Shown here one piece after another: positions 10,607-29,386 of a stretch of DNA of 32,016 nucleotides (positions are counted from its first letter, which is position 1; each line of letters opens with the position of its first letter). The position numbers were made by a program, and so were the translations under genes. Origin of the DNA: Bacteriovorax stolpii (GTDB lineage: Bacteria; Bdellovibrionota; Bacteriovoracia; Bacteriovoracales; Bacteriovoracaceae); NCBI GenBank assembly GCA_945885655.1, contig CAMCZE010000004.1, forward strand, positions 1 to 32,016, in the 5' to 3' direction. Under the pieces are notes generated by a model, which saw only the letters and a program-made list of their open reading frames with translations, was not told the origin of the DNA and searched no databases.

Positions 10607-13600
10607 ATGGATGTTAAGTTATTACTGGTCTTATTATTTGCCATCATCTCATGTACACCTCAAGGCGATGTGAGCAAAGGCAGTTCAGTCAGTCCCACTT
10701 CCACCGGGGGCAGTACAGGTGGATCATCAACTTCAACTTCTCTTACGACAATATGGAATTTTTTAGGAACCAACGCCAACCTCATTTCAGTTAATGTTAC
10801 CAATATTCAAACCGCCTATTTGGTTGGGGCACCCGTTGAAAAATTTTTAGATACAACTGTTGATGGCATTTTTACCAACTTCGCCGGAGCGGAATATTGC
10901 CTCATCTCAAACTTCACCATTAGTGGAACTGCAACCCAGCTTAGAACTCGAGTGGTTCCTATTTCTTATTTTGATTTTAAGGCCAATAAAACAGTACGTG
11001 TTTTCCGAGTGGACTTTCCTGATGTCACAAACTCACAAGGTTTATGTAACCTTCCTGTTAGAACATTCAGTGCCACGGGTGCTTTAGTGGTTGAGCCTTT
11101 TGCGACTCCAAAGTTTGACCCCAATTTATTGTGTTCGACTTGTACGAGTTTTTTAACTTCAGGCAAATTACGCCTTTTTAAACGTGGAACAACCCTAGAT
11201 GAAGTTTCGCTCAATCTTGTTACTCTAACTCCTCTTACTCTCAAAGTTGATCCAAATGCTAACTCCACTGGAGAGGTAGGAATTTGCAGCAATTCTGAGT
11301 GTGTCTCCCGAGGTTTTGATTGCTGTTTAGATAATCAATGTGTCAGAGATGGATTCCCTAGACCTTCAGCATCTTTATCCCATACAACTCAATTGGCCAT
11401 GGCCGAAGCGGAGAGACTTCAAAATCCTTTGGCCTATTTAAATTATCCTCACCTTTTTTATGTGTGTGGAAATTCTATTCCAACGACGACAACCACTGGA
11501 CCAACTACTGGTGTTACTTATGATGCTGCATTTGAAGCGTTAAAAAATGATTATAACTGTATCCAGGATTTAAAAAATCTTTCAAGTTCTACTCCTTTTC
11601 ATTCGGATACACTTTTAGCTCCTGGCCTTCACCCTTTTAATGCTTCAACAAAATGTTTAACTTCAGCTGCTCAAACTTCTTCAACGATGTTTTATCAAAG
11701 TGTGATGAGACGTCTTTATCAAACCTGTGGATGCGCTCAAACAAACCTTCCGGACATGGTGAGTTCTTGTCCGGCCTATGACTATGTCATCGAAGAAGCA
11801 AGTACGACTGGTGCTCCTTTAAGAATTGATTGTTTCACACCCGCAGTGGTTGAACCTAGCATTCCATCAACTCAAAACGTTAACGTCAGTGCAAGATCTG
11901 CTCCTCATCGCTTTTTTGATTCTTCTGGTAATGAACAGGTTCTTTCGTTAAATGCAAATTTCACTCAAGAAGGTGAGGTTTTTAATTACGCCGATGATCA
12001 AAAACTTATACCTCAAGCTCAAAACTTCAGCATGAATTCTATTCTTGGCCAAATGAGTGTGACCATGGATAAGGCCCTTCCGGCCAAAACGGTGGACGTT
12101 GAGGTTGATCAGGTCTATCTCATTTCTACCAGACAAGGATTTTATACTCCATGCCCAACATGCTCTAAAGACTCTTGGCTCTCAACTCTCACCGCTTTTC
12201 CCACCTCTTCATTTGGAACAGGACTTCAGGCCATAGGACACTCAACTGCCCGAGACGAACTTTCAACAAACATCACTGGCGGCAATTACGAAGATACCAT
12301 CTTTGGAAGAGCGTGCTGGCTACCACCAACGATGATTCCTTTCACTCACGCTTCAAACTCAACCATCGCCACTCAAAGAACTGATCGTTTACGTGCTCAG
12401 GCCGCTCTTTTTATCAATGGATATCAGAAGGATTGGTTCGGTTTTAATAAAGGTGCGACCATTGGATCCTTTGATGGAGTAACCTGGTTTGCCATTGGAA
12501 AAGGCAGAATTGTCAGATCCACATCAAAAAAACTTTTCCTCGCCATCAATGCTCCATTTGCTGATGTCGCAAGTCCCACTCTTCAAGTGGTAAATATATC
12601 TGCCTTTGATGGAATCTCTCAGGCCACGGCCGTAGATTACGATCCACAGTTTCATCTCTCCCACCCGCTACAAAACGAAGCAGGAAACTGTCAGGCCAAT
12701 CACTTTTGTTCAACAGATACAGATTGTGTAACAAAACTTGGTTGGGAATATTCTTGTGCTGACGTTAAAACCGTAAAAACCAAGTGGCCAACTTTTGATG
12801 CAGACGGAAATGAAAAAACGGGCTCAACGATCTTAACCTTAGATCAAATCCTTGCTCAAAAGAAGTTTCCCTCCGCCAGCTCCAAGAGATGCATTTACAG
12901 GGGAGCAGGGGCCTTATGTAACAGGGCCACTGAAGCGCAACTCAATCTTATGGATGTTAATGAAAAACGTTTTGCCACCTGTGCACCAAATTTTTTCTGT
13001 GCTGATGTGGATAACACCGCCGCCACTAATTCTGTTTTTAACTCTAAGATCTCTCGTTTTGCTGGGCCCATTGAAGACATTCCCGTCGTAAGAAATCATC
13101 TTTATGGAAGAGATACAAACGTCCTTGGACGTCCACTTCATTATGTGGCCACGTCATCTTCAACTGCAGCTTTAGAAACCACGACACTCCCCTTTAACAT
13201 CTTCAGTATCCTAAAAGATAATTCGGCCTTAACTCTCATTCCTCCTGAAGTTTCAAATGATGAAACCGGTGTATGCCGCCCAGGAAAGGCCCTCGATGCT
13301 AACTCACCTTTCACTCAGCATCGATCAGCAGACACCGAAAGTCGCACGGACTTCATCAATCAAATTGCGAGTTGTGATTCAAAAAACTTTAAAAACGCAA
13401 CCACTACCACCGTAGGCCGATTTGCATCATGCCCTGTTATAAATGCGACCTCTGGTAACTACACCATGTTCACCAGTATTCTTCCCCTAACATTTTCAGG
13501 TCTCGAACATGCTCAGGCAGCAAGACATCAAAACTCATGTGGCCTAGAAGTTGTGAGTGGCATGAGCTCGGCCACCATGAATTTATCAAGTACCACCACC

Positions 13601-15913
13601 GACCAAATAAGCATCTTCTCACCATTTAAACTCATTGAGGCAAAACCCCTGAGTAATACTTCTCAAACAATCATTGATCCGACTCTTACCCGTGATGCTT
13701 GTTTAAGAAGAGCGGGCCAAGTCTGTCACACCGACTTAGACTGTGGGCCAAATAAATTCCATGCGGCCCAAGTTGATTTTTTTCCATCTTTTTTTGGTAA
13801 CGATGCAGAGAAGGCCTATTACAGTGAGTATCTTGTCTGTGGCCAGGAAACTCCAAAACCTCTTCCTTCTCAAGGAACGGTCTTCACAAGTTTTAACATG
13901 GGATTAAATCGCTGTTGCCGTGAGGCCGGTAAAGACATCTCAACTTTCACCAGTGATATACCTACATCAAATGTTACCTCCCTCTCTGGTGGTGTACACT
14001 CTGTTCCTTATGAAGCATCCTCACAATTACTCATGAGCCTAGCGGTCACGGATACTCCACAGAATAGTGCTTTCAAAAATTCAAGACTCATGACGGTTGA
14101 AAATCTGGGTACGCCCGACAGACCTTACCTCACTGCTTTCCAAAACTGGACAAATGCCGCCGCACAAACATTAGTAGCAACCAATGTAAAAAGTCTTGGT
14201 GTTGGATCAACATTTCTAAATGTTAACGTTAGAACACCTAAACAATGGAGAACTTTAAACGAGGCCAACAGTGAAACTTGTTGTGGAGGTGGCTGGGTTC
14301 GTAAGTTTGCAGATGGAACAAATAATTGGAGTAAACGTGATCGATTGTTTATGGATGTGACAAACTTTAAATGTCTTAACTCTAGAACGACACTCTTAAC
14401 AAATCCTACTTCCTTTGATGACTATTATAGACTTCCTTTTACAAAAACAACCAACGCTGTTCTCCCCTTGAGAACTTATGTTCCTGCTAGTAATAATGCT
14501 ACAAATACCGTGGCAAAAGATTTTTTACATTATTGTATTGACCCCTTAGGAGAGGTTGCAAGTTGCGCGCAATTTGGATTTGAATCAAACGTTGCAGATA
14601 CTCCACCTGATTCAAATCCGAGTTTTACCTATGAAGGCTCCATTCAGGTTAATACTCTGACTCCAAATTTTGTCGATAAACTTGATTACCTATTTAAACC
14701 TTTTAGTGCAGATACTGATGTTCGAACTCATCTTAATTTTACAACAACTGATGCACGTAAAAACATAAAAATAAAAATTCCAAGTTATATCTCTTCTGAA
14801 TTTGAAGAACGTTTAAACGAAGATGAGCTTGCAGGTGTTCACAACACGATTAAATTGGTCAATGCGGATGAATCATTCTTCACAGAATGTTCTCCTAATT
14901 CAGTAGCTTTTCCATTTGAAACTACACTCACATCACCTACTACTGGCGATACACTGACCTGCATTCCTATAAATGGCAACTGCTGTTATGCTTATGATCA
15001 AGCTACTCGAACTATAATTGCAACTGCTCAAGCTGGTTCTATTGGAGGAGCTGTTCCAGACGATGAGGATCTAGGTTTAACTTTTGAATTTCACGCTGTA
15101 GGCTCTGTAGATCTAAGAAATTTTTTAAGTCCTAAACCTGGTTATCAAGCCTTAACAAAAACACGTACCAAACCAGGAACAGACTCATACTACCTGCGCC
15201 GTTTAGGAAACTTCGAACTTCTTGGCATTCCACAAATATCTTACGAGGCCCTTTATTGTAATGATGATGAGGACAGAGTTGTTCCTGGACTTTTTAAAAC
15301 ATCTTTGCCTGATAGAGCTAGTTTTGAGGTCAATACAAATTCATTTAAAGACAACGGAATTCATTTCGTGAACCAATTTGCCACTGATCATGAGCCCATT
15401 TTTTCTGCGAATGATTTTAAATGCTGCTCACCATTGGGTAAAACGGTGAACTCTCAGGCCACATGTTGTTCTGGTTTTGGTGTTTCTAATAATGCGACCA
15501 ACACCAGTTTTACTTGCAGACTTCCGGCGGGTACAGATTTGATGGTGTATTTTAACCGTTTTGTTTCTAACGAAGGTGTGGGTACTGACAAACCAGGTGG
15601 CGGTTTGGTGGAAGCTGATTTTGAAGACCAGACTGGGGAACCAAAAGTTCTTAATGCAAGCGTGATTCAGAAAATTTCGGCGATGGGAAATGCTTTTTGT
15701 GTGAACAATTCAGTTCGCCAAGGTGGAGCTTTTGGCCAGTTTGCTCCAGAGCCAGTAGGCCCTTTCACACGATCGGCCATCCCTATATATAATATCGTTG
15801 ATTCTTTTGGAGATTTTGCTACAAATTCCAATGCCACAAAAACTGTTGATGTGGGATACTTTGCTTTTATGAACGGTTTCCGCTGGAACCACCACCTATA
15901 TTGTGATGACTAG
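10607..15913 (+). CDS. giant cysteine-rich surface lipoprotein, unknown function
   Basis: A 1768-aa predicted lipoprotein. The first 16 residues are a lipoprotein signal with lipobox AIISC, the lipidated residue being Cys16. A Ser/Thr/Gly-rich linker (about 20-47) follows, as in proteins displayed away from a membrane. By hand I count about 55 Cys, including six adjacent Cys-Cys pairs (for example DCC, RCC, NCC, KCC and TCC twice). Short patterns of the type C-x-x-D-x-D-C recur (CSTDTDC, CHTDLDC), resembling small disulphide-knot modules. Otherwise the sequence is Thr/Asn/Phe-rich and probably beta-structured. No transmembrane segment, protease motif or known domain was recognised. GGGAG lies 11 nt before the ATG. 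The thioesterase gene starts 12 nt after the stop. A surface or extracellular role is inference. Confidence 0.8.
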   Translation: MDVKLLLVLLFAIISCTPQGDVSKGSSVSPTSTGGSTGGSSTSTSLTTIWNFLGTNANLISVNVTNIQTAYLVGAPVEKFLDTTVDGIFTNFAGAEYCLISNFTISGTATQLRTRVVPISYFDFKANKTVRVFRVDFPDVTNSQGLCNLPVRTFSATGALVVEPFATPKFDPNLLCSTCTSFLTSGKLRLFKRGTTLDEVSLNLVTLTPLTLKVDPNANSTGEVGICSNSECVSRGFDCCLDNQCVRDGFPRPSASLSHTTQLAMAEAERLQNPLAYLNYPHLFYVCGNSIPTTTTTGPTTGVTYDAAFEALKNDYNCIQDLKNLSSSTPFHSDTLLAPGLHPFNASTKCLTSAAQTSSTMFYQSVMRRLYQTCGCAQTNLPDMVSSCPAYDYVIEEASTTGAPLRIDCFTPAVVEPSIPSTQNVNVSARSAPHRFFDSSGNEQVLSLNANFTQEGEVFNYADDQKLIPQAQNFSMNSILGQMSVTMDKALPAKTVDVEVDQVYLISTRQGFYTPCPTCSKDSWLSTLTAFPTSSFGTGLQAIGHSTARDELSTNITGGNYEDTIFGRACWLPPTMIPFTHASNSTIATQRTDRLRAQAALFINGYQKDWFGFNKGATIGSFDGVTWFAIGKGRIVRSTSKKLFLAINAPFADVASPTLQVVNISAFDGISQATAVDYDPQFHLSHPLQNEAGNCQANHFCSTDTDCVTKLGWEYSCADVKTVKTKWPTFDADGNEKTGSTILTLDQILAQKKFPSASSKRCIYRGAGALCNRATEAQLNLMDVNEKRFATCAPNFFCADVDNTAATNSVFNSKISRFAGPIEDIPVVRNHLYGRDTNVLGRPLHYVATSSSTAALETTTLPFNIFSILKDNSALTLIPPEVSNDETGVCRPGKALDANSPFTQHRSADTESRTDFINQIASCDSKNFKNATTTTVGRFASCPVINATSGNYTMFTSILPLTFSGLEHAQAARHQNSCGLEVVSGMSSATMNLSSTTTDQISIFSPFKLIEAKPLSNTSQTIIDPTLTRDACLRRAGQVCHTDLDCGPNKFHAAQVDFFPSFFGNDAEKAYYSEYLVCGQETPKPLPSQGTVFTSFNMGLNRCCREAGKDISTFTSDIPTSNVTSLSGGVHSVPYEASSQLLMSLAVTDTPQNSAFKNSRLMTVENLGTPDRPYLTAFQNWTNAAAQTLVATNVKSLGVGSTFLNVNVRTPKQWRTLNEANSETCCGGGWVRKFADGTNNWSKRDRLFMDVTNFKCLNSRTTLLTNPTSFDDYYRLPFTKTTNAVLPLRTYVPASNNATNTVAKDFLHYCIDPLGEVASCAQFGFESNVADTPPDSNPSFTYEGSIQVNTLTPNFVDKLDYLFKPFSADTDVRTHLNFTTTDARKNIKIKIPSYISSEFEERLNEDELAGVHNTIKLVNADESFFTECSPNSVAFPFETTLTSPTTGDTLTCIPINGNCCYAYDQATRTIIATAQAGSIGGAVPDDEDLGLTFEFHAVGSVDLRNFLSPKPGYQALTKTRTKPGTDSYYLRRLGNFELLGIPQISYEALYCNDDEDRVVPGLFKTSLPDRASFEVNTNSFKDNGIHFVNQFATDHEPIFSANDFKCCSPLGKTVNSQATCCSGFGVSNNATNTSFTCRLPAGTDLMVYFNRFVSNEGVGTDKPGGGLVEADFEDQTGEPKVLNASVIQKISAMGNAFCVNNSVRQGGAFGQFAPEPVGPFTRSAIPIYNIVDSFGDFATNSNATKTVDVGYFAFMNGFRWNHHLYCDD

Positions 15914-16411: not shown

Positions 16412-17217
16412 AATATTCCCGATATGACTTTATTTTAGTGTTGCTCTCTTTTTTTCAGGCATCAGGCCTGTTATTGTGGGCCATTTATTTTAACGATTTA
16501 TATTTCAACGAAAACTGTCTGATCTTTTTATTTCAATTATTTTTGTTTTATTTTAACCCTATCGTAACCACTCATAACTTTTTACACACACCTTTTTTCA
16601 CTTCTTCTTGGATGAATAGCTCTTTTGCCATTTTAAACTCTATGAATCTTGGTCTGCCTCAAATTCTCTATAAATATCATCACCTCAATCATCACCGTCA
16701 TAATAACTCTCTCGAAGATCCTTCATCGACCTATCTTTTTGGGAAAAATAAAAAGCAGGAACACTGGATCAGCTACAGTGCTCGTTCGTTATTTAGAGAA
16801 GGAACTACCCTTGCTTTTAAACAGACTTTACAAAAAAAAGAAACGGCCCAGCTCTTGGTTGAAACTCTAAGCACACTTTTTTTTTGGTCCATGTTAGTTT
16901 TTATTAATTGGAAATTTTTTATTTGTGCTTACTTGCCACTTTTTTATGCGGGATGGTTTTTGGCCCATGTTGAAAATTATTTTGAACACTTCAAGGCCCG
17001 TGCTCCATCAAATCGTTTTGGGAATGCAGTCAGTTTTTATGGGAGAGGTTATAATATTGTAATGTTTAATGAAGGGTATCATCAAGAGCATCACATCTCG
17101 CCTCAAGAACATTGGTCAAAACGTCCTGAAACAACACTTCGTTATCAAAAACAAATGAGGGAAGCAGGTGCCTATACGGCCAAACTTCCCCCACTCTTAG
17201 GTATGTTCGAAAGATAA
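16408..17217 (+). CDS. fatty-acid-desaturase-like membrane di-iron oxygenase
   Basis: A 269-aa membrane protein with three His boxes of the desaturase/hydroxylase superfamily: HNFLH (56-60), HHLNHHRH (91-98) and HQEHH (225-229), plus an extra His pair (187, 194). These coordinate two irons. Hydrophobic segments lie at about 8-30, 35-55 and 155-185. Such enzymes desaturate or hydroxylate acyl chains, and some relatives act on carotenoids or sterols; the substrate is not certain here. The start codon overlaps the thioesterase stop as ATGA, favouring an acyl-lipid substrate. It is short for a desaturase (300-400 aa). It ends 11 nt before the convergent glutaminase-like gene, with no obvious terminator between. 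Confidence 0.82.
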   Translation: MKYSRYDFILVLLSFFQASGLLLWAIYFNDLYFNENCLIFLFQLFLFYFNPIVTTHNFLHTPFFTSSWMNSSFAILNSMNLGLPQILYKYHHLNHHRHNNSLEDPSSTYLFGKNKKQEHWISYSARSLFREGTTLAFKQTLQKKETAQLLVETLSTLFFWSMLVFINWKFFICAYLPLFYAGWFLAHVENYFEHFKARAPSNRFGNAVSFYGRGYNIVMFNEGYHQEHHISPQEHWSKRPETTLRYQKQMREAGAYTAKLPPLLGMFER

Positions 17218-17228
17218 CTTATTAAAGC

Positions 17229-18080
17229 TTACCACCAACCAGTAAAAGCTTGTTTCCAAGCAGTACTTACTTCACTTTGATTCCAAGATCTTTGTGGAAC
17301 TGTCTCAGTCTCCATAAGTTCTAAATTATTTGGTTCCCAATAGTACATTGGAACTTTCATTAGATAACAAGATTGAGCGTACTGATTATTGTTATACTCA
17401 GAATATTTAGCAACTGTTGGGCAATAAGCTTCATTCTGCATGAATTCATCAGTCCAAGCTTTCATTTCATAGGGAGCGTCAGTAAAAGCTCTATCAAGAA
17501 CTCTTTCTTCAGCTTTTCCATTAATGTCTACTAAAACATAAGGAGAAACGTGGAACCACCACTTATAACGGTATTGTCTGATGTATTTTGTTGTGAAGAA
17601 CAAAAAGACTTTCATTGATTTCACTGAGTGTCTGTTCCACATATCATTGGCCCAAACGTGGGCACGATTAAAACATTGAGATCTTTTTTTTGCTCTACCA
17701 TTCATTTCCCAGAAATACTCATCAGCTGTTTCCAAAGAAGAAATAACTGTTGGTTCATAGGCCTGGGCCTGAATTTTAAAACGTGAGGCCGCTTTGACTT
17801 TAGATTGACCTGCAAGTTTAGCACCGATAACGTTTCCATGGGTGTCGATCTCTACTTTAACGAGGAAGTTATCTTTCTGAGCGATTGAGAAAGCTTCAAC
17901 CATTTTTGTGTCCGTGCTATCAACAAGAAGAACACGGCCTTCTTTGTGTGCAAAAACAAGTGTCGGTTCAGTAGGTGAAGTACTGATATCAACTTTTTCG
18001 ATGGTTGTAGTCAAAACCGTATTCCCAACAACACCTGCAAAAGCAGAGCTGAAGAGAATGAATGCGAGCGAACTCAACAT
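17229..18080 (-). CDS. predicted secreted protein-glutaminase-like deamidase
   Basis: A 283-aa exported protein; the signal peptide is residues 1-15 (cleavage near AFA-G). The C-terminal half matches what I know of the protein-glutaminase fold, whose enzymes deamidate Gln side chains in proteins. Key elements are Cys136 in QCFNRAHVWANDMW, His177 in KWWFHVSPYVLVD, and Asp196 in ERVLDRAFTDAP. The spacings of 41 and 19 residues compare with 41 and 20 in the Chryseobacterium enzyme (Cys156-His197-Asp217, from memory). Residues 16-120 would then be a pro-region. The Trp/Tyr/Cys-rich end is also family-like. AAGGAG lies 6 nt before the ATG. Substrate and location are unknown; a role in modifying foreign or envelope proteins is inference. 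Confidence 0.7.
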   Translation of the reverse strand: MLSSLAFILFSSAFAGVVGNTVLTTTIEKVDISTSPTEPTLVFAHKEGRVLLVDSTDTKMVEAFSIAQKDNFLVKVEIDTHGNVIGAKLAGQSKVKAASRFKIQAQAYEPTVISSLETADEYFWEMNGRAKKRSQCFNRAHVWANDMWNRHSVKSMKVFLFFTTKYIRQYRYKWWFHVSPYVLVDINGKAEERVLDRAFTDAPYEMKAWTDEFMQNEAYCPTVAKYSEYNNNQYAQSCYLMKVPMYYWEPNNLELMETETVPQRSWNQSEVSTAWKQAFTGWW

Positions 18081-18111
18081 ATGTATCTCCTTAACAAATT
18101 AGTTTTGGGGA

Positions 18112-18140
18112 TATGTACAATTCATGACTGAGTCCGGCAA
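18112..18140 (-). promoter_or_regulatory. candidate promoter of the glutaminase-like gene
   Basis: Minus strand: TTGCCG (18135-18140), 17-nt spacer, TACATA (18112-18117). The match is moderate. It lies immediately past the terminator at 18151-18176, so this gene has its own transcription unit. Confidence 0.35.
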
Positions 18141-18150
18141 GAGGGTGAAT

Positions 18151-18176
18151 AAAAAAAGCCTCCATTCGGAGGCTTT
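18151..18176 (-). terminator. intrinsic terminator, minus strand
   Basis: Stem AAAGCCTCC (18155-18163) pairs with GGAGGCTTT (18168-18176) around a 4-nt loop. On the minus strand the stem runs on into T residues, giving a T-tract of seven. It ends transcription from the 38-aa gene or from the promoter at 18271-18299. Confidence 0.9.
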
Positions 18177-18332: not shown

Positions 18333-18449
18333 TTAGTTATTATGCCCTTTTAGAAGTTTTTTCTTACGAGCAATTCTTTTTAATTTAAGACCGCTTTTGT
18401 TGTTCTTCTTAGATTTTTTCGCAGGGCGCGACTTTTTTAACTTTTTCAT
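18333..18449 (-). CDS. very basic 38-aa protein, ribosome- or nucleic-acid-associated candidate
   Basis: A 38-codon gene with an excellent ribosome binding site: GAGGAGG ends about 5 nt before ATG 18449. The product has 15 Lys and 3 Arg in 38 residues and no acidic residue. It starts MKKLKKSRPAKKSKK and ends LLKGHNN, with a likely helical KLKRIARKKKLL stretch. This composition is typical of tiny ribosomal proteins (bTHX, bS22, AURKAIP1/COX24-like) or of DNA-compacting peptides, but I cannot match it to one. An AT-rich divergent promoter region lies between it and the gene at 18523. It is separated from the terminator at 18151-18176 by about 155 nt. The start signal, bias and terminator make it a credible gene. 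Confidence 0.72.
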   Translation of the reverse strand: MKKLKKSRPAKKSKKNNKSGLKLKRIARKKKLLKGHNN

Positions 18450-18522: not shown

Positions 18523-19323
18523 ATGCTTACAGGATATTTACTCTTTTTCATCACTCTTCCACTATTTGCACAGGTTAGGCCGCCCATCCAAGTCATACCG
18601 GAGCCTAAAACCGCCGCGGATTTTGAACATCAGTTCAAAGGATGTTTTGAAAACTCTGAATGTGACCAGGTTATGGGACTTCAACTTGGGCGCTGGAGGG
18701 AGCTTATCACAAAGCTCAAGGCGCCCGAAATGGGTGAAGAGAAAAGAGTTCAGTTCCTGGAACTCTTTAGAGCAAAGTATGGTTTACCGATTGAATTCTA
18801 CACAAATGATAAATCTCAGCTCACTTTTAGGCCTATGATTTTCAACTCTCCATGTAAAAATCATAATCTCAAAGAAAAAAAAATCTTAAGAGGAACCGCT
18901 TTCATTAAAGCACTTTCAAAAGAGAAGGCAACAGTTTGGAGAGATCAGGCCCAGATAGAGGTTCCCATTGGGGAGTTTTTTATTCCTCAGCCAGTGCTCG
19001 TGTATTTTTCACCCACGCCTGAGGTTTATTTTTTACCTTTGGATGATCAACCTCTTTATCTTAAAAATAAAGAGATCCATGTTCTTAAAGATGAAGATGA
19101 TTACTTTTATTCAATCAAAATTGATCGTTTAGGAAATTGGAAGGCCGTGGCCACGGATTATTCTCGTTTAAGCGAGCTCGAAGATAAAAGACAGGAAGTG
19201 AAATGTCCATCAGAGACATTTTCGGCCCCAAAAGCTTTTGGGACCGAATTTTGTAAAACTGTATGGGACGAAGATACTAAAAAAACAGTGATCGTTAAAA
19301 TGTACCGCGGCTGTGTTATTTAA
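18523..19323 (+). CDS. secreted protein of unknown function
   Basis: A 266-aa exported protein. The frame opens at 18502, but ATG 18523 has GGGAG 5 nt upstream and gives a clean signal peptide (LTGYLLFFITLPLFAQ, cleavage near residue 16). The mature part has six Cys: one in FKGCFENSECDQ with a partner four or five residues on, one in SPCKNHN, one in VKCPSE, and two near the C-terminus. It has alternating hydrophobic strands consistent with a beta-rich periplasmic domain. No catalytic motif or known domain was recognised. It is transcribed from the perfect TATAAT at 18484 and ends 8 nt inside the convergent lipoprotein gene. Confidence 0.75.
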   Translation: MLTGYLLFFITLPLFAQVRPPIQVIPEPKTAADFEHQFKGCFENSECDQVMGLQLGRWRELITKLKAPEMGEEKRVQFLELFRAKYGLPIEFYTNDKSQLTFRPMIFNSPCKNHNLKEKKILRGTAFIKALSKEKATVWRDQAQIEVPIGEFFIPQPVLVYFSPTPEVYFLPLDDQPLYLKNKEIHVLKDEDDYFYSIKIDRLGNWKAVATDYSRLSELEDKRQEVKCPSETFSAPKAFGTEFCKTVWDEDTKKTVIVKMYRGCVI

Positions 19324-19993
19324 GGGTGGCCGTTCTCACTAAAACCTTGCCTATTTCGCAAGTTGAACGTGAGACAAGCTTTCTTTCTACAAAAAATCCG
19401 ATACGTGGGCCAGTTATCTGAAACTTAATCCACTCCTCAGAACCGATACGATAATCATTGCCTTCAACAAGCTGACCTTTTCTAATCATCACACAAAGAG
19501 TATTCACATTATCCCCTGCACATTCACTCGTCCTTGTAAGAGCTGTAAACCAGATGGCGATACTTGAATTAATCTGCATGGGACTTCTGATATCACCAAG
19601 GTTTTTACAAATTTCGGCCATTGATCCATACCGAGTGGTCTCTACATTTGGAAAAGCAAAAGGATCATTATTGATTTTTTTAAAAATATAATTATCTTGA
19701 GAAGGCTCAATTTTAACTAAGATATCAAGCGCTGGAGAAGCACTTTCGGCGGCACAACTTTTTTCAGAGAACAAATACGTAAAATGAGTATCAGGACCCA
19801 AATCATTAAGCACAGCTACTTTACTATCTAAAGCATTACAGATGCGTGCAAGCTTGGAAGCATCATCATTACTTAAAAGTTCTGGATTGTAACTTATTAG
19901 GGCCGAAACCGTTGCGGGATCCGTTCTTTTGAGGTCTTTTTTGTTACATGAAAATATAATAAAAAGGCTCAGAAATACGAACAGCTTCGCCAT
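19316..19993 (-). CDS. lipoprotein, paralogue of the next upstream gene
   Basis: A 225-aa lipoprotein. The frame opens at 20020, but ATG 19993 is preceded by GGAGG at 6 nt and gives a proper lipoprotein signal with lipobox IIFSC (Cys16). The mature part resembles the protein at 20059-20748 along its length: ARICNALDSKVAVLND, a central IAIWFTALT segment, and RIGFFVERKLVSRSTC near the end have counterparts in the same order. Five or six Cys are conserved in place, suggesting a disulphide-bonded periplasmic domain. No known family was recognised. The last 8 nt overlap the convergent gene at 18523. Confidence 0.8.
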   Translation of the reverse strand: MAKLFVFLSLFIIFSCNKKDLKRTDPATVSALISYNPELLSNDDASKLARICNALDSKVAVLNDLGPDTHFTYLFSEKSCAAESASPALDILVKIEPSQDNYIFKKINNDPFAFPNVETTRYGSMAEICKNLGDIRSPMQINSSIAIWFTALTRTSECAGDNVNTLCVMIRKGQLVEGNDYRIGSEEWIKFQITGPRIGFFVERKLVSRSTCEIGKVLVRTATLK

Positions 19994-20058
19994 AGGGATC
20001 CTCCAATTTAATTTGCTCATTAAATTGTCATTAATCGTGGAGTTCCTGGCAAATTTTA

Positions 20059-20748
20059 TTATAGGTTTTTAAGCAAGGCCCTAACTTCTGTTGTTTGATT
20101 CACAGCACACAGACCTGTTGAAATATTAGTCCGTTGTAAAAAAAATCCTATGCGAGGTAAAGTGGGATCAACTTGAAAACGGAAAAAGTCACGATCAGTA
20201 ATTTTATAGGTGTTCCCATTAGGACTCCCTGTCTCGACTGAAAGACACAAACTTTGGGGGGTTGGAGAACAATCTGTACTATTTACCTTTGTAGTAAACC
20301 AAACGGCCTTACCACTTGAAAGAACCACTGGATTTGTTATTGGATTGGTGGTGCTAGAAAGTTTACTACATAGCTCTCCGACTAAACCACTGTTAGGAGT
20401 TTGTAATTCACTAAAAATGAAATCTCGATTATCCAAAACTCTTTTAAAATAGTACTGAGTTCCAGCTTGCTGAATATAAACAGATTCATCAAAAGCGGCC
20501 GGAGCTGTTGCCTGAATACAACTTTTCTGACTAACGGTAAAAATATAAGTGTCCGCAGTGGTATTATTAAGTGCCAAGGCCTTTTGCCCTAAAGCATTAC
20601 AGATCGTCGACAGCTGGGCACGATCATCACTTTCAATATTAATGAGTGAAAGACTGCGCTGAGTTCCCACCACTGCATCACTATTTGTGCCTGGAGGGTT
20701 GCCACCGCAGGCCGCTAATAAAAAAAGAGGTAAGGCCCACATTTTCAT
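20059..20748 (-). CDS. lipoprotein, paralogue of the next downstream gene
   Basis: A 229-aa lipoprotein with signal MKMWALPLFLLAAC (lipobox LAAC, Cys14) and a Gly/Asn/Pro linker. It is homologous by eye to the protein at 19316: LSTICNALGQKALALNN, KAVWFTTKVNSTDC, and PRIGFFLQRTNISTGLC align in order. Sequence identity looks about 30%, so the duplication is old. The start lies 2 nt from the stop of the upstream lipoprotein gene at 20751, and 65 nt separate it from its paralogue, so all three probably form one transcript. Function is unknown. Confidence 0.8.
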   Translation of the reverse strand: MKMWALPLFLLAACGGNPPGTNSDAVVGTQRSLSLINIESDDRAQLSTICNALGQKALALNNTTADTYIFTVSQKSCIQATAPAAFDESVYIQQAGTQYYFKRVLDNRDFIFSELQTPNSGLVGELCSKLSSTTNPITNPVVLSSGKAVWFTTKVNSTDCSPTPQSLCLSVETGSPNGNTYKITDRDFFRFQVDPTLPRIGFFLQRTNISTGLCAVNQTTEVRALLKNL

Positions 20749-25795: not shown

Positions 25796-26599
25796 ATGGT
25801 GCTAAAAAGCCTTGTCCTCATTTTTTTCTTTTGTACGACTATCTCAGTGATGGCCCAATCGACTGATCAAGTTTTACAAGAGATGGAAGATGATACAACT
25901 TTAGGCAGTGACATCTTTTCTGATTTTAATGAAGATCTAGAATCAGCTCAAGTTTTAGAAGACGAACGTTTTTATCGTTACGGCCGTTTTTTTTCCGTTA
26001 ACCTTGGTGGAGGGGCAACAACTTTCACCGGTAATCGTGGTAAGGCCTACGATGACAATCACCCGACTTTCCATCTCTCTGTTAACTATTTTTTAGATTT
26101 TCAAAAAGCTATCACCCTCGGTATTGAATATTCAAAACACACCATGGTTCTTGATACTGTCGTCAATGGCTTCCCAGATAATGGCCCCTTGGGTGCGGTC
26201 GTCACAGATATGACACGCGTTTTTGTGGGTTATAAATATTATGTTGATACCACGGACTTAGGTACGGCCATCACATATTCAAATCCTCACTTCATCGGTC
26301 GCCTTGAATACTGGTACCAAAGCAATAAATTTATTGATCAACCGTCTATACCTCGCGAAAAAGGTGGCGGTATTGGAACAGGTATCGGAGCGGGATTTGA
26401 ATTTCCTGTAGTTTTAAAAGAATCTTATATCAGTGTGGAAGGTCTTTATCATGTCGTGAACTTCTTTGATAAGTTCACCCAGAATTACCGCCAGGCCTTC
26501 AATGCCGACGGTACTACCGTTGAAGGTAGTACTTTTGGAATTGATGACCTGACAGGAAATGCGATGTCACTTATCGTGACTTATAACTTTACTTGGTAG
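25796..26599 (+). CDS. outer-membrane beta-barrel protein
   Basis: A 267-aa exported protein. The signal peptide covers about residues 1-20 (ends SVMAQ). An acidic linker of about 35 residues (rich in Asp and Glu) follows. Strand-like repeats come next, for example [51 protein letters not shown] and [12 protein letters not shown]. It ends IVTYNFTW with a terminal aromatic residue, the usual barrel signature. The size would fit a barrel of 8-10 strands. No ribosome binding site is seen; it begins 10 nt after the previous gene and may depend on coupling. The last 11 nt overlap the convergent der gene. Confidence 0.75.
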
Positions 26600-28424
26600 A
26601 GGCAAATTTCTTTTCAACTTTTTTCATCCTTCGTTCAATGTCCGACGAAGTTCTAAAAATCAAATGAACCGGCGTGTTCGTAAGATCAAATTCACGACGG
26701 ATCCCATTGACTAAATATTTCCTGTAATTCTCAGGAATCCCTTGAGACTTGTTACTAAAGAGTAGGAACGTCGGAGGACTCGTCTTAAGCATTGAAGCAT
26801 ATTTCACTTTGAAACGAACACCGTTGGTTTTTTTAATGACCACAGGGTTCTGATCAGTAAGATTCTGAAGGCATCTATTTACTGCACCTGTTGAGATCTT
26901 ACGGTTACGAACAACGATTGTTCGTTTGACGGCTTCACGAAGATAATTGATGTTACGGTTTTTCTGAGCAGAAATAGTCACTAGCTGACAAAAACCTAAC
27001 CAAGGCACATCATCTCTAAGATTTTGTAGCCATTCTTTTTTCTTTTTAGCATCAGCAAAAGTTTCTCTTAAGAGATCAATCTTATTTAGACAAATGATGA
27101 TGGACTTACCTTTTTCCAAAGCAATGTCACAAAGACGACGATCTTGGTGAGTAATGCCTAAGGTCGAATCTACCATAAAAAGCACAATATCAGATTCAGT
27201 AATTGAACGAAGAGAGCGATAAACTGATTGAGTTTCAATAAAACCATCAACAAGCTTAGACTTACGAATTCCAGCAGTGTCGACGATTTTTATCGAGCGC
27301 CAACGGTTGATCTGATGAGCATGCTCAAGATTTTCAACTTCTTCTGCCGGCCCATTCCAGTTTTTTTCTATTTCTGAAACGATTTGTTTTTCCGTAAAAT
27401 AATCCTCTCCTACATTAGACTCATCAAAACTAAAATCATTTGAACCTGTAGGTTCCACGATATCAGCGAATGCATCTTCAGTTGTTTGACCAAACTCTAA
27501 ATAGATTTTTTTCTCTTCTTCTGTTAAATCTTCCTCATCAACACTAAAATCTACATGTCCTGCATCTTGATACTGTTTGATCTCATTATAAATATCTGCA
27601 TTATCTTTTCTGAATGGATTTTCTTTCGAACTTAACATCTCAACATCTGGCCCAAAATAAAGGTCAATATAACCTTCAATAGGATCAACTGTCGTTCCAG
27701 CAATTTCTGAAACAAGAGCTCGCTGAGCTCCTACTAAACAATTAAGAAGAGTTGATTTTCCAGCATTTGGAGCACCGATAATGGCCACTGAAGAAACGAC
27801 ATCATGACGTGGGGTCACGCCTTTTTGCAAAAACTCCTCATCTTCTTGACCTTGGAACTCACGAGACATTTTTGTCAGACGTTCACGAAGATCATAAAAG
27901 CCACGGTTATGTTCAGCAGATACAATCATCATATCTTCTTCATCAAGGCCTAACTTATAAAATTCGTACTGATCTCCTTCTTGTTTTTCAGTGTCAAACT
28001 TGTTGAGGATGAGCCAAAAAGGTTTTTTAGTTGATTTGATATAATCACAGATGCCTTTGTCAAAAGGCAAAAACCCTTCTCGAACATCTACTATGAACAA
28101 TACAAGATCTGATTCATCAATGGCGATTTTTGCATGCTCTGCCATGATATTAAAAAAAGGATCAACGTTGTTTTTTTTACGTGCATCGATTTCTATCTTT
28201 TCGGGATAAAAACCACCTGTATCAACAAGAATAAGTTCTTCATGAATGGTTTCCCCTTCATAGACTTCATCCAACGTCATGATGCCGTAATGGCGGTCTC
28301 GAGTGACACCTGGCTGATCGTGAGTCATGGCCAAATGTTGTTTTTTCATCAATCGGTTAAAGATGGTACTCTTCCCGACATTGGGTCTCCCAATAAGGGA
28401 AACGACCAGAGATCTTTTATTCAT
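26589..28424 (-). CDS. der: Der (EngA), double-GTPase of 50S assembly, with an acidic insertion
   Basis: A 611-aa Der; typical proteins are 440-490 aa. Der has two GTPase domains and a KH-like domain and helps mature the 50S subunit. First domain: GRPNVGKS (12-19), DTGG (68-71), NKFD (141-144). Second domain: GAPNAGKS (217-224), switch-I Thr in AGTTVDP (242-248), DTAG (382-385), NKID (447-450), SAQK (485-488). The KH-like domain is about 510-600, followed by a basic tail. Between switch I and DTAG lie about 135 residues where E. coli has roughly 20; the extra part is strongly acidic. ATG 28424 follows GGAGG and overlaps the era stop as ATGA. Confidence 0.95.
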
Positions 28425-29386
28425 TTTTTCCTCCACACACGAGCTGAATTTTGTGTTCGTGGTAGGCCTATCTCATCTAATACGTAATTGTTATTAAACC
28501 ATTTTGGCGAAACTTTAACGTGGAGATTTAAATGCACCTTCCCACCTGTCATCGCTTCAATTTTTTTACGAGCATTGATCCCTATTTCTTTAATCACTGA
28601 ACCACTTCTTCCTACAACAATCGCTCTCTGAGAAGGACGGTTAACAAGAATAGAAGCAGAAATGTGCGAGGCACCAGGACTCATATCATCTTTTTTTACA
28701 TCTTTATATTCATCAATTACCACTGCCACTTCATAAGGAAGTTCCTCTTGCAAAAGACGGAATGCCTGCTCCCGAATGTATTCAGTGGCAAAAAATCTTT
28801 CACTCTTATTTGATACGTCACCGGCCGGATAAAGATGTGGCCCACTGATGGCCACGTCTTGGATAGCACCAGTAAGTTCGTGGATGTTATGTCCATCTTT
28901 GGCGCTGATCACAAAATGTTTTTCAATGCTTGGGCAAATTTCTTTGAGTTGAGCAACAATGGGAGCAACGTTAATAGTTTCTTTGTTTAAAAGATCGGCC
29001 TTTGTGAAGATAATCCATGTACGCCCAAGAGGAGCATCAAAGTTTTTCATAAACTCTTTAAATTCTAAAACCATATCAGTCATGAGGTCCACTAACACAA
29101 AGTTAATATCCACTCCTTCAGATCCCATTTGGGCCTGGCCATTCATACGTTTATTGATCTCCTGACTCGTAGAGTGAACTCCCGGAGTGTCGACTAAAAC
29201 CACTTCCGTGCGATCAATTGTAAAAGCACAATGAAAATTATTTCTTGTGGTCTGAGGCTTAGAACTTACAATTGAGAGATCAAAACCCAAAAGGTGGTTA
29301 ATGAAAGAACTTTTCCCAACGTTGGGTTTTCCTAATACGGCGATCATGATCGCTTTATTGTGCGGATGTTGGTCAGTTAATAACAT
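28421..29386 (-). CDS. era: Era, GTPase of 30S assembly
   Basis: A 321-aa Era that binds the 3' end of 16S rRNA during 30S maturation. It has GTPase motifs GKPNVGKSS (19-27), switch I PQTTRNN, DTPGVH (66-71) and TKAD (128-131, where NKxD is usual). The C-terminal KH domain has [18 protein letters not shown] with the GxxG-type loop (GRSG). Its N-terminal 10 residues are polar and extra. AAGGAG lies 7 nt before ATG 29386, overlapping the rnc stop region. It is translationally coupled to der at the 3' end, an rnc-era-der order joining three ribosome-maturation factors. Confidence 0.96.

What the first reader, a model, noticed from the sequence alone, without database searches (positions are those of the whole stretch)
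17229..18080. Secreted protein-glutaminase-like enzyme with an intact Cys-His-Asp set
Cys136, His177 and Asp196 are spaced 41 and 19 residues apart, nearly as in the known secreted protein glutaminase, within matching local motifs (CFNRAHVWAND, WWFHVSPYVLVD). A signal peptide and a 100-residue putative pro-region precede it. Such enzymes deamidate protein glutamines; in a predatory or surface-active bacterium it could modify prey, host or envelope proteins. Few have been studied.
Basis: partly seen in the sequence, partly recalled or inferred. Interest (0 to 1): 0.6.

Follow-up and report, generated by a model that had tools for sequence, protein, structure and literature searches.

The report
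Secreted protein-glutaminase from predatory-bacterium relative
The gene encodes an exported, pro-domain-bearing relative of protein-glutaminase, an enzyme that changes glutamines to glutamates in other proteins, and it belongs to a multi-copy family (2 to 14 copies per genome) in a little-studied genus related to predatory bacteria, where many of the sister genes are followed by a gene for a matching surface or periplasmic lipoprotein.

Summary
Window 17229-18080, on the MINUS strand, is one open frame of 283 aa with a Sec-type signal peptide, a folded pro-domain and a C-H-D catalytic domain. It passes Pfam's cut-off for Gln_deamidase_2 (PF18626; 47 bits against 25, E=3e-12). Profiles built from relatives reach the solved protein-glutaminases, pro and mature forms (E down to 4e-16). 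Cys136, His177 and Asp196 align with Cys42, His83 and Asp103 of the Chryseobacterium enzyme. A confident AlphaFold model (pLDDT 92) finds only protein-glutaminases among significant PDB matches. Deamidase activity itself is inferred. The catalytic domain is under strong purifying selection in the family; the pro-domain evolves faster. The window copy is a lineage-specific gain: two relatives have an exact empty site. In 54 of 136 relatives the gene directly downstream encodes an uncharacterised EF-hand-loop lipoprotein (0 of 136 upstream), a candidate self-protection partner; the window copy lacks it. The prey-protein role is plausible but untested.

The parts
17229..18080 (-). whole gene, 283 aa preproenzyme (stop codon 17229-17231)
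   Evidence: PF18626 47 bits against cut-off 25
18036..18080 (-). signal peptide, residues 1-15 (MLSSLAFILFSSAFA|G), cleavage site inferred
   Evidence: sequence; hydrophobic N-terminus in 139 of 147 relatives
17763..18035 (-). pro-domain (residues about 16-106), folded beta-rich core 20-92 plus a less confident linker
   Evidence: AlphaFold pLDDT about 95 for residues 21-90, 74-76 in the linker; profile match to the pro part of 3a54/3a56; faster evolution
17232..17753 (-). catalytic domain (residues 110-283)
   Evidence: AlphaFold pLDDT 94.5, significant PDB matches only protein-glutaminases; profile to 2zk9 E=1e-10
17673..17675 (-). codon of Cys136, nucleophile, equivalent to Cys42 of protein-glutaminase
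17550..17552 (-). codon of His177, equivalent to His83
17493..17495 (-). codon of Asp196, equivalent to Asp103
18087..18092 (-). ribosome-binding site AAGGAG
   Evidence: sequence
18112..18140 (-). sigma-70-like promoter by eye: TTGCCG, 17-base spacer, TACATA
   Evidence: sequence; inference, not scanned against shuffles
18155..18176 (.). hairpin with a T run on the minus strand, terminator of the small basic gene upstream, conserved in relatives
17212..18146 (.). segment absent from the syntenic site of genomes G012 and G003 (empty site): lineage-specific gain of this gene

Best explanation
The gene encodes a Sec-exported zymogen of the protein-glutaminase family (Gln_deamidase_2). The pro-domain folds with the enzyme and keeps it inactive in the cell's own envelope; proteolysis in the linker around residues 93-110 releases the catalytic domain, whose Cys136, activated by His177 and Asp196, attacks side-chain amides of protein glutamines and leaves glutamates plus ammonia. 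In this Bacteriovoracaceae genus it is one of a multi-copy set of such enzymes, most likely used outside the cytoplasm on proteins of prey or of the surroundings. Shown here: gene, family, fold, intact triad, export signal, pro-domain, purifying selection in the family, multi-copy family, lineage-specific gain of this copy. Inferred: catalysis on glutamine, activation by cleavage, prey as target.
For: PF18626 over cut-off. Alignment profile to PDB: 8z3i 4e-16, 3a54/3a56 4e-12 spanning pro and mature parts, 2ksv/2zk9 5e-10 to 8e-10; catalytic domain alone 4e-13 to 3e-10 with C-H-D on C42-H83-D103. AlphaFold pLDDT 92.1, pTM 0.87; Foldseek's only six hits with E below 0.001 are protein-glutaminases, E to 7e-11 over 265-271 columns for the pro forms; same for the catalytic domain, TM 0.59/0.55. 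Triad invariant in 96/96. Catalytic domain dN/dS mostly 0.04-0.14 in close family pairs, pro-domain usually faster. Copies: 6 in own genome, 26/26 genus genomes, 222/369 phylum genomes, 0/14 controls.
Against: Only 14-17% structural-alignment identity to characterised enzymes, TM about 0.5-0.6 and rmsd 5-6 A; the profile match stops before the last 50 or so residues, and cysteines differ (C220/C238 here, others in the Chryseobacterium enzyme). Specificity-pocket residues were not compared, so glutamine as substrate is by family. Triad geometry not measured. No close orthologue: nearest relative 39-41% identical, so selection was measured on other family members, not on this gene. No expression or localisation data. 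One sister copy in this genome has an in-frame TAG.
Confidence: 0.72

Rival explanations
1. A papain-like protease or transglutaminase-like enzyme that kept the protein-glutaminase fold but uses another reaction: peptide-bond hydrolysis or Gln-Lys cross-linking through the same Cys-His-Asp thioester.
For: The fold class includes proteases, acyltransferases and transglutaminases (PMC10318531); sequence identity to studied enzymes is low and the C-terminal part diverges.
Against: Only protein-glutaminases score significantly by fold; the next hit, a vasohibin, has E=0.13. Pfam, profile and pro-domain all point to the same family.
Confidence: 0.15
2. A true protein-glutaminase whose role is self-directed or nutritional: modifying the cell's own envelope proteins, or releasing ammonia/glutamate from any environmental protein, rather than acting on prey.
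For: The Chryseobacterium enzyme is a secreted enzyme of a non-BALO bacterium found in culture supernatant (PMC9396377); the genus is known to me only from draft genomes and its lifestyle is not tested; many genomes of the same family have no copy.
Against: Copy number is highest in a family with known predators and many sister enzymes travel with a lipoprotein gene, as expected if the cell must be protected from them; both are circumstantial.
Confidence: 0.35
3. A decaying or inactive copy, kept as a binding protein or on the way to loss.
For: No close orthologue, absent from the syntenic site in relatives, and a sister copy has an in-frame stop.
Against: Full-length frame, all three catalytic residues, signal peptide, ribosome-binding site and a confidently folded model.
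Confidence: 0.07

Closest known systems
Protein-glutaminase of Chryseobacterium proteolyticum (EC 3.5.1.44; PDB 2zk9, 2ksv, pro forms 3a54-3a56) and FBPG of Flavobacterium sp. 316 (8z3i)
   Same: pre-pro-mature layout of similar lengths (about 15-21 + about 90-118 + about 174-185 aa; PMC9396377), C-H-D triad with spacing 41 and 19-20, CxxRAH and WxxHV motifs, profile and fold match over pro-domain and catalytic domain
   Different: 14-17% identity in structural alignment; lacks the loop of about 13 residues before the Cys; different cysteines; diverged C-terminal part; one of six copies in its genome
Pfam PF18626 Gln_deamidase_2 members of Bdellovibrionota (222 of 369 genomes searched)
   Same: same family; most have signal peptides and the triad
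   Different: the window copy forms an isolated lineage with no member above 41% identity, and has no downstream lipoprotein partner
Bd3459/Bd3460 of Bdellovibrio bacteriovorus: exported endopeptidase followed by the gene of its periplasmic self-protection protein (PMC4686830)
   Same: the enzyme-then-protector gene order resembles the sister PG-lipoprotein pairs
   Different: unrelated proteins; inhibition by the lipoprotein is not shown, and the window gene is solitary

Membership tests
Protein-glutaminase family (PF18626) | score over the curated Pfam cut-off | tested here: met
   47 bits against 25, E=3.1e-12
Protein-glutaminase family (PF18626) | catalytic Cys-His-Asp aligned with C42-H83-D103 | tested here: met
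   printed alignments; invariant in relatives
Protein-glutaminase family (PF18626) | papain/transglutaminase-like fold closest to protein-glutaminase | tested here: met
Protein-glutaminase family (PF18626) | export signal and N-terminal pro-domain homologous to that of proPG | tested here: met
   profile match from profile position 51 to chain residue 55 of 3a54; Foldseek match over 265-271 columns of the pro forms; signal peptide judged from sequence, no dedicated predictor
Protein-glutaminase family (PF18626) | triad residues within bonding distance in the model | not testable with these tools
   model coordinates are not released to the Python box
Protein-glutaminase (EC 3.5.1.44) | deamidation of protein-bound glutamine, not asparagine, without proteolysis | not testable with these tools
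   needs an enzyme assay
NCBIfam named family | match to a curated NCBI model | tested here: not met
   no NCBIfam hit
PG plus EF-hand-loop lipoprotein two-gene unit (described here) | partner gene directly downstream on the same strand | tested here: not met
   no partner-profile frame anywhere in the window; the downstream neighbour is a convergent fatty-acid desaturase gene

The most novel reading that the evidence does not exclude
This Bacteriovoracaceae genus uses a diversified set of secreted protein-glutamine deamidases as predation enzymes, many of them encoded with a dedicated calcium-loop lipoprotein that stays in the predator's envelope and blocks the enzyme there. The window gene would be a later-gained, unpaired member that relies on its pro-domain alone or borrows protection from the unlinked lipoproteins of the same genome.
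Probability: 0.3. Interest if true: 0.75.

Novelty: new member of a known kind. Interest (0 to 1): 0.5.

Why it matters
Characterised protein-glutaminases are few, valued as food enzymes and, so far as I could find, from Bacteroidota. I found no paper in the held library that links them to predatory bacteria, and a review of BALO secreted enzymes does not mention glutaminase or deamidase. A phylum-wide, often multi-copy set of such enzymes in relatives of predators would add protein deamidation to the known prey-processing chemistry, and the paired lipoproteins make a self-protection hypothesis directly testable. It also offers many natural enzyme variants.

Tried and rejected
Single-sequence phmmer against the PDB found nothing of weight (a chance beta-lactamase stretch, E=0.4): only profiles reached the family. 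The Pfam hit ANAPC4_WD40 at residues 32-70 (E=0.04, under cut-off) is rejected: the region is part of the pro-domain. Foldseek matches of the full model to AB5 toxin B subunits and tRNA synthetases fall away with the catalytic domain alone, so they come from an OB-like small beta fold of the pro-domain and say nothing on function. Viral, plasmid and PHROG searches gave no relatives, so there is no sign of a phage or plasmid gene. The lipoproteins at 19316-20020 and 20059-20748 were considered as the missing partner: they do not match the partner profile and are conserved at this site in genomes that lack the window PG. Rfam found no RNA element in the window. The single-protein scan of genome contigs found nothing; the alignment scan found 146. 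The Python copy of the whole genome was not available. The 2011 paper on the pro forms is not in the library, so the pro-domain's inhibitory contacts could not be compared.

Full report
Observation. The frame at 17229-18080 is real but lies on the minus strand. It encodes 283 aa with a ribosome-binding site (AAGGAG) and a plausible promoter (TTGCCG-17-TACATA, by eye) in the 60 bases before the start.

Family. Pfam places residues 134-211 in Gln_deamidase_2, E=3.1e-12, 47 bits against a cut-off of 25. A 71-row alignment of relatives (A1) turned into a profile finds, in the whole PDB, protein-glutaminases 8z3i (3.9e-16), 3a54/3a56 (4e-12), 2ksv and 2zk9 (5e-10 to 8e-10), the next entry having E=0.95. 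The match covers part of the pro-domain as well as the mature part. The catalytic domain alone gives the same set; on the printed alignment, Cys136, His177 and Asp196 fall on Cys42, His83 and Asp103 of 2zk9 (my count from the printed start residue). Beyond the triad, Arg139-Ala140-His141, Lys157, Trp174, Val178 and Trp209 match as well.

Structure. AlphaFold2 with A1 gives pLDDT 92.1 and pTM 0.87, with a confident N-terminal beta-rich domain (residues 20-92), a less confident linker and a confident catalytic domain. Foldseek's six PDB matches with E below 0.001 are all protein-glutaminases, the pro forms first, over 265-271 columns. For the catalytic domain alone (pLDDT 94.5) the same six are the only ones below 0.001, TM 0.59/0.55 for the best; the seventh, a vasohibin, has E=0.13. 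The match is moderate (rmsd 5-6 A for most, 14-17% identity), as expected for a distant branch. Distances within the triad could not be measured.

Selection and pro-domain. In pairs of close relatives with unsaturated synonymous sites, the catalytic domain has dN/dS of about 0.04-0.14, and the pro-domain usually two to several times more (a rough Nei-Gojobori count; one pair has too few synonymous changes in the pro-domain to mean anything). This fits an enzyme under constraint with a faster-evolving pro-domain. The window gene itself has no relative close enough for the test.

Distribution. The genome holds six copies, one with an in-frame TAG between the His and the Asp. All 26 genomes of the genus have copies, 2 to 14 each. 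In the phylum, 222 of 369 genomes have at least one, mostly 1-4; none of 14 control genomes does. Titles of related contigs read Bacteriovoracaceae, Bacteriovorax, Halobacteriovorax and Bdellovibrionales, all metagenome-assembled. On a quick FastTree of 145 members, the copies of the two genomes looked at have their nearest relatives in other genomes, so most duplications predate the species; the window protein is a long, isolated branch, 39% identical at most. The genome has HMG-CoA reductase and flagellins and no DXP reductoisomerase; mevalonate-pathway genes are enriched in most predators but not exclusive to them (PMC4646340). The genome is 85% complete, so counts are lower bounds and the absence of a single gene is weak evidence.

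Site. The block thioesterase - desaturase - [PG] - terminator - small basic gene - 18502 gene - two lipoproteins - 20751 gene - 21572 gene is syntenic in several genomes of the genus. In G012 and G003 the alignment runs to window 17211 and resumes at 18147 with adjoining coordinates in the relative: the 935 bases that hold the PG are absent. In G018 and G009 the desaturase is not found there either. The slot between thioesterase and terminator is therefore variable, and this PG is most simply a lineage-specific gain (loss in the others is less parsimonious but not excluded).

Partner genes of the sister copies. Of 142 PG genes with enough downstream sequence, 84 have a same-strand gene within 150 bases; 41 of these begin with a lipobox, against 139 of 1048 background genes (odds ratio 6.2; the rows are related, so the p-value is not literal). 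Forty-six of the downstream proteins form one family. With its profile, the partner lies directly downstream in 54 of 136 PG loci, directly upstream in 0, adjacent on the opposite strand in 1. The family has an invariant lipobox cysteine, a near-invariant EF-hand-type loop DxNxDGxxDxxE and two further invariant cysteines, no Pfam match over cut-off, and weak PDB matches mainly to EF-hand loops. It also has many unlinked members in the same genomes. A second, unrelated family of about 141-aa exported proteins follows another PG clade, including copy L005 of this genome. An enzyme followed by its periplasmic protector is known from Bd3459/Bd3460 (PMC4686830); that the lipoproteins act so is a hypothesis. 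The window PG has no such partner beside it.

Verdict. The family assignment is secure; protein-glutamine deamidation is the most likely chemistry; the predation role is a reasonable but untested guess. The individual gene is a new member of a known family; the multi-copy family and the partner lipoproteins are the part worth a specialist's attention.

Noticed in passing
relatives, e.g. L002:565-1470 (-), L072:1882-2529 (-), L079:10783-11475 (+): Uncharacterised lipoprotein family with an EF-hand-type loop, encoded directly downstream of 54 of 136 PG genes and also found unlinked; no Pfam family.
   Followed up: partly
relatives, e.g. L054:997-1422 (-), L061:1903-2325 (-): Second family of about 141-aa exported proteins directly downstream of another PG clade (13 cases), no Pfam match over cut-off.
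   Followed up: partly
17212-18146: Variable gene slot: PG absent in G012 and G003, PG and desaturase not found in G018 and G009, flanks syntenic.
   Followed up: yes
L004 (G000:C174), about 881-1693: Sister PG copy with an in-frame TAG between catalytic His and Asp, followed by an apparently intact partner lipoprotein gene: pseudogene or assembly error.
   Followed up: partly
18333-18449 (-): 38-aa strongly basic protein gene with a good ribosome-binding site, up to 84% identical at the same site in relatives.
   Followed up: partly
26589-28436 (-): Der/EngA GTPase of 615 aa; an acidic stretch of roughly 110 residues seems inserted in the second GTPase domain.
   Followed up: no
19316-20020 (-) and 20059-20748 (-): Tandem paralogous lipoproteins without Pfam match, conserved as a pair in relatives.
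   Followed up: partly
10607-15913 (+): 1768-aa exported, cysteine-rich protein with a lipobox-like start and no Pfam match.
   Followed up: no
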